Assembly: GCA_011523825.1 (NCBI GenBank)
Contig: WTFX01000009.1
Span: forward strand, 538,420-602,419
Direction of reading: 5' to 3'
DNA from: Microthrixaceae bacterium
GTDB taxonomy: Bacteria > Actinomycetota > Acidimicrobiia > Acidimicrobiales > Poriferisodalaceae
DNA length: 64,000 nt
Shown here: piece after piece, positions 22,522 to 23,752 of the stretch
Layout of the letters: each line of letters opens with the position of its first letter
How positions within the stretch are numbered: the stretch's first letter is position 1
Notes under the pieces: model-generated
Database searches by the model: none
Told to the model about the DNA's origin: nothing
Seen by the model: only the letters and a program-made list of their open reading frames with translations
Made by a program: the position numbers and the translations under genes

Positions 22522-23268
22522 CTACGGCAAGCCGTTGACAAACGAAGCGATCTTCTCGCCGACGACTCGTGCGTGACCCATCAGGAAGTGATCGCCGCCC
22601 GAGATCACGTCGAGCTGGGTGTTGGTCCAGCGTTCGGTGATCTCGGCCGCTTCGGCGGGGGAGCGGAACTGGTCGTGCTCGGGCACCAGGACCAGCTTGG
22701 GCCGGGGATCGGCAGCGGCGCCCATCGATGCCGGATCGACGATCCGCAACGGTGCAGCAATCCCGATCCATGCCGACAAGCTGTCGTGGCTGGCCGCCAG
22801 CGAGACGTCGCCGCCGAATGACCAGCCGGCAGAGACGACCCGCGACGCGGCAGCAGCGGGCGATCGTTCTGCTGCGAGGCGCACGGCTGCGTCGAACGCC
22901 GCCGCGGCGTCGAGCTGTTCGGCCTTCCCGTCGTCGTGGCGGCCGCCCGAACGTCCGGTGCCCCGAAAGTTGTAGCGAAGCGTCGCGATGCCGCTCGCTG
23001 GCAGGGCCCTGAAGAGGTGATCGACGAGCGGGTTCCACATGTCGCCGCCATAGAGCGGGTGCGGATGGGACAGCACCGCCACCGCTGCGGCTGTGCCGAC
23101 GGAACTGCCGCCATCGACGCCTGATCCTTCAGGCCCGGTCGCAGCGGGCCAGGCAGCTTCGGCCTCGAGCTCGATGCCATCGGAGGACACTGCCTCCACC
23201 GCGAACGCCTCGACCTGAAACGGCGGGCCAGGAGCAGGCGGGCGCCGCGAATTCTCTGCGTCATTCAC
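22522..23268 (-). CDS. Alpha/beta hydrolase (dienelactone-hydrolase-like)
   Basis: 248 aa from GTG 23268. VLSHPHPLYGGDMWNPLVDH, TLRYNFRGTGRSGG, the nucleophile elbow SAGWSFGGDVSL and the catalytic pair region PEHDQF and GGDHFLMGH match the group of small bacterial alpha/beta hydrolases annotated as predicted KANL3-like or dienelactone-type hydrolases. Substrate unknown. The start is supported by a minus-strand TACCGT that ends 8 nt upstream and is part of a palindrome shared with the divergent GroES-like gene. Confidence 0.75.
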   Translation of the reverse strand: MNDAENSRRPPAPGPPFQVEAFAVEAVSSDGIELEAEAAWPAATGPEGSGVDGGSSVGTAAAVAVLSHPHPLYGGDMWNPLVDHLFRALPASGIATLRYNFRGTGRSGGRHDDGKAEQLDAAAAFDAAVRLAAERSPAAAASRVVSAGWSFGGDVSLAASHDSLSAWIGIAAPLRIVDPASMGAAADPRPKLVLVPEHDQFRSPAEAAEITERWTNTQLDVISGGDHFLMGHARVVGEKIASFVNGLP

Positions 23269-23276
23269 GCCGGTGA

Positions 23277-23286
23277 ACGGTACCGT
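23277..23286. promoter_or_regulatory. Palindromic bidirectional -10 element (ACGGTACCGT)
   Basis: The ten bases ACGGTACCGT are a perfect inverted repeat. Read rightward, TACCGT (23281-23286) ends 7 nt before GTG 23294 of the GroES-like gene. Read leftward, TACCGT (23282-23277) ends 8 nt before GTG 23268 of the hydrolase. The two start codons are only 25 bp apart, so one small element appears to serve two divergent leaderless transcripts. Confidence 0.5.
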
Positions 23287-23293
23287 GCGGGCG

Positions 23294-23752
23294 GTGAGCG
23301 CTCCTGAGACCAACAACGAGCACGGCGCCGCTTCGGCGACCAAACCCGCTCGTCCCTCGAAGAGCTCGAAGTCCAGCGGCCGCCCGAAGCCCGCCGCCAG
23401 CAAGCCGAAGCCGTCCGCCCCGCCCGACTCCGACGGTGAGCGCCGGCCCATCAAGATGCTCCACGACCGCTTGCTCGTGCGGCTGCCCAACGACGGCTCG
23501 GAGCGGCGCACCAGCGGCGGCATCCTGATCCCGGCAACCGCCCAGCAGAACAAGCGGCTCGTGTGGGGCGAGGTGATCGGTGCAGGGCCGAACGTCCGGA
23601 CCGCCCAGGAAGGCGACCGGGTGCTGTTCAGCCCCGAGGATCGCCACGAAGTCGAGGTGCACGGCGACGATTTCCTGATCTTGCGCGAGCGTGACGTGCA
23701 CGCCATCGCTGCACCCCGCATCGAGCCCGGCAGCACTGGCCTGTACCTGTGA
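23294..23752 (+). CDS. GroES-like co-chaperonin with N-terminal extension
   Basis: 152 aa from GTG 23294. Residues about 55-145 form a Cpn10 domain: IKMLHDRLLVRLPNDGSERR, TSGGILIPATAQQ, GEVIGAGPN, and DFLILRERDVHAI. The mobile-loop sequence SGGILIP matches GroES. Ahead of it are about 50 residues rich in Lys, Pro, Ser and Ala, absent from ordinary 95-100 aa GroES. No groEL is adjacent, so this is probably a second, specialised copy. Two in-frame GTGs upstream (23273, 23285) are less likely because the shared -10 element overlaps them. trpEG follows 28 bp downstream. Confidence 0.78.
   Translation: MSAPETNNEHGAASATKPARPSKSSKSSGRPKPAASKPKPSAPPDSDGERRPIKMLHDRLLVRLPNDGSERRTSGGILIPATAQQNKRLVWGEVIGAGPNVRTAQEGDRVLFSPEDRHEVEVHGDDFLILRERDVHAIAAPRIEPGSTGLYL

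What the first reader, a model, noticed from the sequence alone, without database searches (positions are those of the whole stretch)
23268..23296. One palindromic -10 element serving two divergent leaderless genes
ACGGTACCGT gives TACCGT on both strands, 8 nt and 7 nt from divergent GTG starts only 25 bp apart. Polymerase could load in either direction but not both at once, so the hydrolase and the GroES-like gene would be mutually exclusive or balanced.
Basis: partly seen in the sequence, partly recalled or inferred. Interest (0 to 1): 0.6.

Follow-up and report, generated by a model that had tools for sequence, protein, structure and literature searches.

The report
Conserved two-way promoter without leaders
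A ten-letter DNA palindrome appears to act as one shared start switch for two genes that point away from each other, and it has mostly been kept in related bacteria wherever both genes sit side by side.

Summary
In detail: ACGGTACCGT lies at 23277-23286, and TACCGT on each strand ends 7 and 8 nt before divergent GTG starts. It is not chance. TANNNT is the most depleted three-base gapped motif in coding DNA of this genome (41 seen, 267 expected). Where it does occur, it clusters 6-8 nt before in-frame starts (87, against 8 in two control frames), the leaderless-promoter signature. The palindrome occurs once in the 3.3 Mb genome. Among 112 distinct homologous loci, mostly Acidimicrobiia, 62 have the hydrolase divergent and adjacent. 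All 62 carry TANNNT before both starts, and 55 share the central TA. Elsewhere the base completing the reverse -10 is kept in 11 of 47. Spacing, start codons and absence of Shine-Dalgarno motifs fit two leaderless transcripts from overlapping CGNTANNNT elements. Best reading: a genuine, old bidirectional promoter of the kind described by Warman, Grainger and colleagues. 'Mutually exclusive' expression is not supported: tested E. coli examples show no competition at basal activity (PMC12825309), and 7 of 62 loci have separate -10s. No transcript data were available.

The parts
23277..23286 (.). Palindrome ACGGTACCGT: two back-to-back -10 elements sharing TA at 23281-23282
   Evidence: 10 of 10 bases kept in 41 of 62 loci with the adjacent divergent hydrolase
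23281..23286 (+). -10 hexamer TACCGT for the GroES-like gene, preceded by CGG 23278-23280
23277..23282 (-). -10 hexamer TACCGT for the hydrolase gene, preceded on its strand by CGG (23285-23283)
23287..23293 (+). 7-nt discriminator up to the GTG start; no Shine-Dalgarno-like tetramer (0 of 55 shared-TA loci)
23269..23276 (-). 8-nt discriminator up to the GTG start; no Shine-Dalgarno-like tetramer (0 of 55 shared-TA loci)
23294..23752 (+). GroES-like (Cpn10 domain) protein, 152 aa, start GTG
22522..23268 (-). Alpha/beta hydrolase (serine aminopeptidase S33 / Hydrolase_4), 248 aa, start GTG

Best explanation
The palindrome is a bidirectional promoter. A housekeeping sigma factor reads CGG-TACCGT on either strand; the two hexamers share the central TA. 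Polymerase bound one way starts at or next to GTG 23294 (GroES-like); bound the other way it starts at or next to GTG 23268 (hydrolase). Both mRNAs are leaderless or nearly so. Only one polymerase can occupy the site at a time, but at ordinary strength this should give low, parallel expression and not a switch. Shown by sequence: both -10 motifs, their spacing, their conservation and their association with the divergent gene. Inferred: exact transcript starts, the sigma factor, and the lack of competition.
For: Genome-wide leaderless signature: 87 in-frame against 8 out-of-frame at gaps 6-8. TANNNT purged from genes on both strands, 41 vs 265 and 35 vs 252, with TANNT and TANNNNT unaffected. 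62 of 62 loci with the adjacent divergent hydrolase have TANNNT before both starts, 55 with shared TA. The reverse A is present in 55 of 62 with the hydrolase and 11 of 47 others. The conserved columns match two overlapping CGN-TANNNT elements, a form common in M. tuberculosis (PMC3898074 passages). Start spacing 24-29 bp in all 55, near the 23-bp class of PMC12825309. No Shine-Dalgarno-like tetramers.
Against: No transcript data. On supported branches only 4 independent contrasts exist and the link between reverse A and hydrolase is not significant; on all branches the median p is 0.008 on a weakly supported tree. 11 loci keep the A without the adjacent hydrolase. My search chose starts that have a TANNNT at gaps 4-10, which favours finding one. 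TACCGT is not the commonest leaderless -10 of this genome (TAGCGT 14 of 87, TACCGT 5 of 87), so its dominance at this site is not fully explained.
Confidence: 0.88

Rival explanations
1. The palindrome is chiefly an operator bound by a dimeric regulator that controls both genes; the -10 resemblance is secondary.
For: Exact two-fold symmetry, including bases a bare TANNNT leaves free; 41 of 62 loci keep all ten bases. In M. tuberculosis lysG/lysE a palindrome between divergent genes is bound by LysG (PMC5648196 passages).
Against: 13 of 62 loci break the symmetry on one side yet keep TANNNT on both strands; 7 of 62 have two separate -10s and no palindrome at this place. One copy in the genome and no regulator gene beside it. 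Loci without the hydrolase lose the left half while keeping the right. The free bases are explained by the reciprocal CGN.
Confidence: 0.06
2. The overlap is under selection because competition for the single site balances or alternates the two genes.
For: Simultaneous binding is sterically blocked at such sites (stated in PMC12825309). The overlap is kept in 55 of 62 loci.
Against: Five of five tested E. coli cases show no competition at basal activity (PMC12825309). 7 of 62 loci do without overlap. Tight packing alone would keep the overlap.
Confidence: 0.17
3. The motif is a chance palindrome and transcripts start elsewhere.
For: No transcript mapping is available; in-frame GTGs also exist at 23285 and 23273.
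Against: Strong depletion of TANNNT outside promoters, conservation in 62 of 62 loci, no ribosome-binding motifs.
Confidence: 0.03

Closest known systems
Bacterial bidirectional promoters (Warman et al. 2021, not held, known here through citing papers; PMC10268837; PMC12825309)
   Same: One pseudo-symmetrical -10 region serves divergent starts. A 2-bp overlap with 7-bp spacing gives 23 bp between starts (my arithmetic), a common class in PMC12825309.
   Different: Those are defined from mapped starts, mostly 18 bp apart; the two papers read do not mention leaderless pairs in the parts I saw. Here the starts are predicted, 24-29 bp apart (26 in the window, just beyond the 7-25 bp definition of PMC10268837), both appear leaderless, and the site is conserved over many genera.
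Leaderless TANNNT promoters of Actinobacteria (PMC3160421, PMC3898074)
   Same: TANNNT about 12 bp upstream of the start, often preceded by CGN, no -35 consensus.
   Different: Here two such elements overlap on opposite strands.
Divergent lysG/lysE of M. tuberculosis (PMC5648196) and juxtaposed divergent promoters in M. tuberculosis (PMC3898074, figure legend)
   Same: Divergent actinobacterial genes with close or overlapping promoters; some starts leaderless (a second lysE start; prpD and its divergent neighbour).
   Different: lysG/lysE has a 108-bp intergenic region and a palindrome bound by the regulator LysG; here the space is 25 bp and neither gene is a regulator.

Membership tests
Bidirectional promoter | -10 elements on opposite strands overlap or share bases | tested here: met
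   TA 23281-23282 belongs to both hexamers; shared in 55 of 62 loci with the adjacent hydrolase
Bidirectional promoter | Divergent transcription starts 7-25 bp apart (PMC10268837) | not testable with these tools
   Starts are not mapped. Predicted spacing is 26 in the window; 24-29 in the 55 loci, most often 25 (25 loci) and 26 (19 loci)
Bidirectional promoter | Both RNAs are made in vivo | not testable with these tools
   No transcript data available
Leaderless promoter of Actinobacteria | TANNNT 6-8 nt before the start codon | tested here: met
   7 and 8 nt; genome-wide excess at gaps 6-8
Leaderless promoter of Actinobacteria | No Shine-Dalgarno site | tested here: met
   No GGAG, AGGA or GAGG upstream on either side in 55 of 55 loci
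Operator of a dimeric regulator | Two-fold symmetry conserved as such | tested here: not met
   13 of the 55 shared-TA loci break the symmetry but keep both TANNNT; 7 of 62 lack the palindrome

The most novel reading that the evidence does not exclude
Selection keeps the overlap itself: across Acidimicrobiia a GroES-like protein and a hydrolase are tied to one polymerase-loading site whose conserved bases serve both directions, so that the ratio or noise of the pair is set by competition and not by a regulator. Some loci have separate -10s and would be natural controls.
Probability: 0.17. Interest if true: 0.7.

Novelty: new member of a known kind. Interest (0 to 1): 0.5.

Why it matters
[quoted passage not shown] This one is kept over many genera of one bacterial class. 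The reverse half is mostly absent where the reverse gene is absent, and some loci have the two elements apart. That is a ready-made series for asking whether sharing a -10 is a regulatory device or a result of tight packing. The same genome purges TANNNT from genes six- to sevenfold, so many promoters can be read almost directly from its DNA.

Tried and rejected
Operator reading: rejected as main explanation because non-palindromic variants keep both -10s and the site is unique in the genome. Chance: rejected. A first expectation for TANNNT from a plain codon shuffle overstates the depletion (530 expected), so I used a shuffle that keeps codon-boundary dinucleotides (265). Other shared-TA pairs: none of the 7 further ANNNTANNNT in the 400-kb sample lies between two leaderless starts of long genes. 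A pattern search with one mismatch gave mostly matches that break the TA. Tree of the GroES-like protein: too few columns, 6 starred of 88 inner branches. Structure prediction, RNA-family, plasmid and phage searches were not used, as they do not bear on a 10-bp promoter.

Rows left out before counts: of 137 loci, L001 and L057 (copies of the window; L002 stands for it), L056 (no GroES-like profile hit) and 22 loci identical over the 90 bases before the conserved core were dropped, leaving 112. Three of these 112 (L008, cut by its contig, L035 and L115) had no forward TANNNT at the tested gaps. The named-genome search kept the best 80 of 572 loci.

Full report
What is there. Window 23277-23286 reads ACGGTACCGT, a perfect palindrome. 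Read on either strand it gives CGG-TACCGT. The plus hexamer ends 7 nt before GTG 23294, the start of a 152-aa Cpn10/GroES-domain protein; the minus hexamer ends 8 nt before GTG 23268, the start of a 248-aa alpha/beta hydrolase.

Where it comes from. The window is a 64-kb part of a 3.3-Mb, 31-contig genome. The closest named records are uncultured 'Acidimicrobiia bacterium' MAGs (L058-L064).

Is the motif meaningful in this genome? In the 400-kb sample plus the window, TANNNT lies 6, 7 or 8 nt before an in-frame start of a called gene 87 times, against 8 times in the two other frames together; at most other gaps there is no such excess (gap 9: 8 against 2). GTG and ATG starts are equal there (43 and 43, and 1 TTG). 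In coding DNA, TANNNT is seen 41 times where a synonymous shuffle that keeps codon-boundary dinucleotides expects 265, and its complement 35 times where 252 are expected. TANNT (593, 580) and TANNNNT (359, 363) are at expectation. Among the three-base gapped motifs tried, these two are the most depleted by far. So a bare TANNNT behaves as a promoter here, and leaderless starts are common (inference). This agrees with published work on Actinobacteria: TANNNT signals at around 12 bp upstream of the start (PMC3160421, passages), and TANNNT in 73% of primary starts without a -35 consensus in M. tuberculosis, often preceded by CGN (PMC3898074, passages).

Is this site special? ACGGTACCGT occurs once in the genome. 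It is the only ANNNTANNNT in the window; seven more lie in the 400-kb sample, none between two leaderless starts of long genes. Of 10 divergent leaderless pairs found (2 in the window, 8 in the sample), it is the only one sharing its TA.

Conservation. One search found matches to the GroES-like protein in 61 of 61 genomes searched (some only to a paralogue). With loci taken by region and from named genomes, 137 loci were read and 112 distinct ones counted. Sixty-two have the hydrolase divergent and adjacent. All 62 have TANNNT before both starts. In 55 the two hexamers share the TA (41 ACGGTACCGT, 5 ACGGTAGCGT, 4 ACGGTACCCT, 2 ACGGTACCTT, 1 each of ACGCTACCGT, ACGGTAGCTT and ACGCTAGCGT). In 7 (L040, L077, L086, L101, L104, L105, L124) the -10s are separate. 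Of the 50 others, 46 lack the adjacent hydrolase but have a forward -10, 1 (L084) has the hydrolase about 1 kb away, and 3 have no forward TANNNT. The reverse A is present in 55 of 62 and in 11 of 47 (Fisher p 2e-12, not corrected for kinship). With kinship, supported branches give only 4 contrasts and no significance; all branches give 17 contrasts, about 8 for, 0.3 against, 8.6 ties, median p 0.008.

Fine structure. Among the 55, the columns are A100 C100 G100 G96 T100 A100 C87 C100 G87 T100 percent, while flanking columns outside the family are 35-69 percent. The A, T and central TA columns are fixed by the way the loci were chosen; the C and G columns are not. These are what two overlapping CGN-TANNNT elements would need: the CG of each extended -10 lies in the free NNN of the other. 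That accounts for the palindrome without an operator (inference). Start codons (GroES-like/hydrolase) are GTG/ATG 26, GTG/GTG 23, ATG/ATG 6, and lie 24-29 bp apart. The GroES-like start is the first in its frame in 28 of 55 and the hydrolase start in 15 of 55. No Shine-Dalgarno-like tetramer is present on either side in 55 of 55.

A natural deletion. In G002 (L006, same genus) the hydrolase gene is gone: the stop of the upstream AMP-ligase gene is followed by about 100 bp and then the intact palindrome and GroES-like gene. It is one of the 11 loci with the A but no hydrolase, and looks recent. Another of the 11, L048, has a 78-codon open frame starting 9 nt from the reverse hexamer.

How it works. 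Best reading: RNA polymerase with the housekeeping sigma loads on the same 10 bp in either direction and makes a leaderless mRNA each way (inferred). Competition is possible but not expected at basal strength: PMC12825309 (abstract, introduction, discussion read) reports that five of five tested E. coli bidirectional promoters are too weak for it, and that repression of the partner can appear when one direction is activated. The seven separate-element loci show that sharing is not essential.

Novelty. Bidirectional promoters and leaderless TANNNT promoters are both known. Searches for 'bidirectional promoters' with 'leaderless' (4 papers, none on such a pair by title and abstract) and for related terms turned up no described shared -10 between two leaderless genes in the held library; only listings and the named passages were read, so this is weak evidence. 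I file it as a new member of a known kind, unusual for its depth of conservation.

Side finding. The TANNNT depletion was compared in ten samples (sense/antisense ratio of seen to expected): this genome 0.17/0.14; G042 0.21/0.35; G038 0.48/1.33; G047 0.40/0.38; G028 0.46/0.52; Klenkia (G061) 0.21/0.62; G073 0.79/0.90; G070 0.58/0.61; G071 0.38/0.38; E. coli K-12 0.84/0.88. Selection against spurious -10 motifs is a known effect (PMC1939733, search listing only); the size here is striking. Samples other than this genome are 100 kb, so their ratios are rough, and G038 antisense shows no depletion.

Noticed in passing
L138-L157 (400 kb of the same genome): TANNNT is depleted six- to sevenfold in coding DNA on both strands while TANNT and TANNNNT are not. 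The effect is weaker in most relatives and slight in E. coli K-12.
   Followed up: partly
L006 (G002), about 100 bp left of the palindrome: A species of the same genus has lost the hydrolase gene but keeps the intact palindrome and GroES-like gene: a natural one-sided deletion.
   Followed up: partly
15567 and 15645 in the window: A second divergent pair of predicted leaderless genes (676-aa minus, 438-aa plus) with separate -10s whose TAs are 78 bp apart.
   Followed up: no
G000:C31:325427-325780: A second Cpn10-family match about 39% identical to this protein, perhaps the ordinary GroES; the GroES-like protein of the window scores below the NCBIfam GroES cut-offs listed, and its family ends in a conserved TGLYL.
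   Followed up: no
L138-L157, eight places listed: Eight further divergent pairs of predicted leaderless genes with TA offsets of 15-139 bp, candidates for separate close promoters.
   Followed up: no
L048, left of ACGGTAGCGT: No hydrolase found, yet the reverse -10 is complete and a 78-codon open frame starts 9 nt from it; perhaps another small divergent gene.
   Followed up: no
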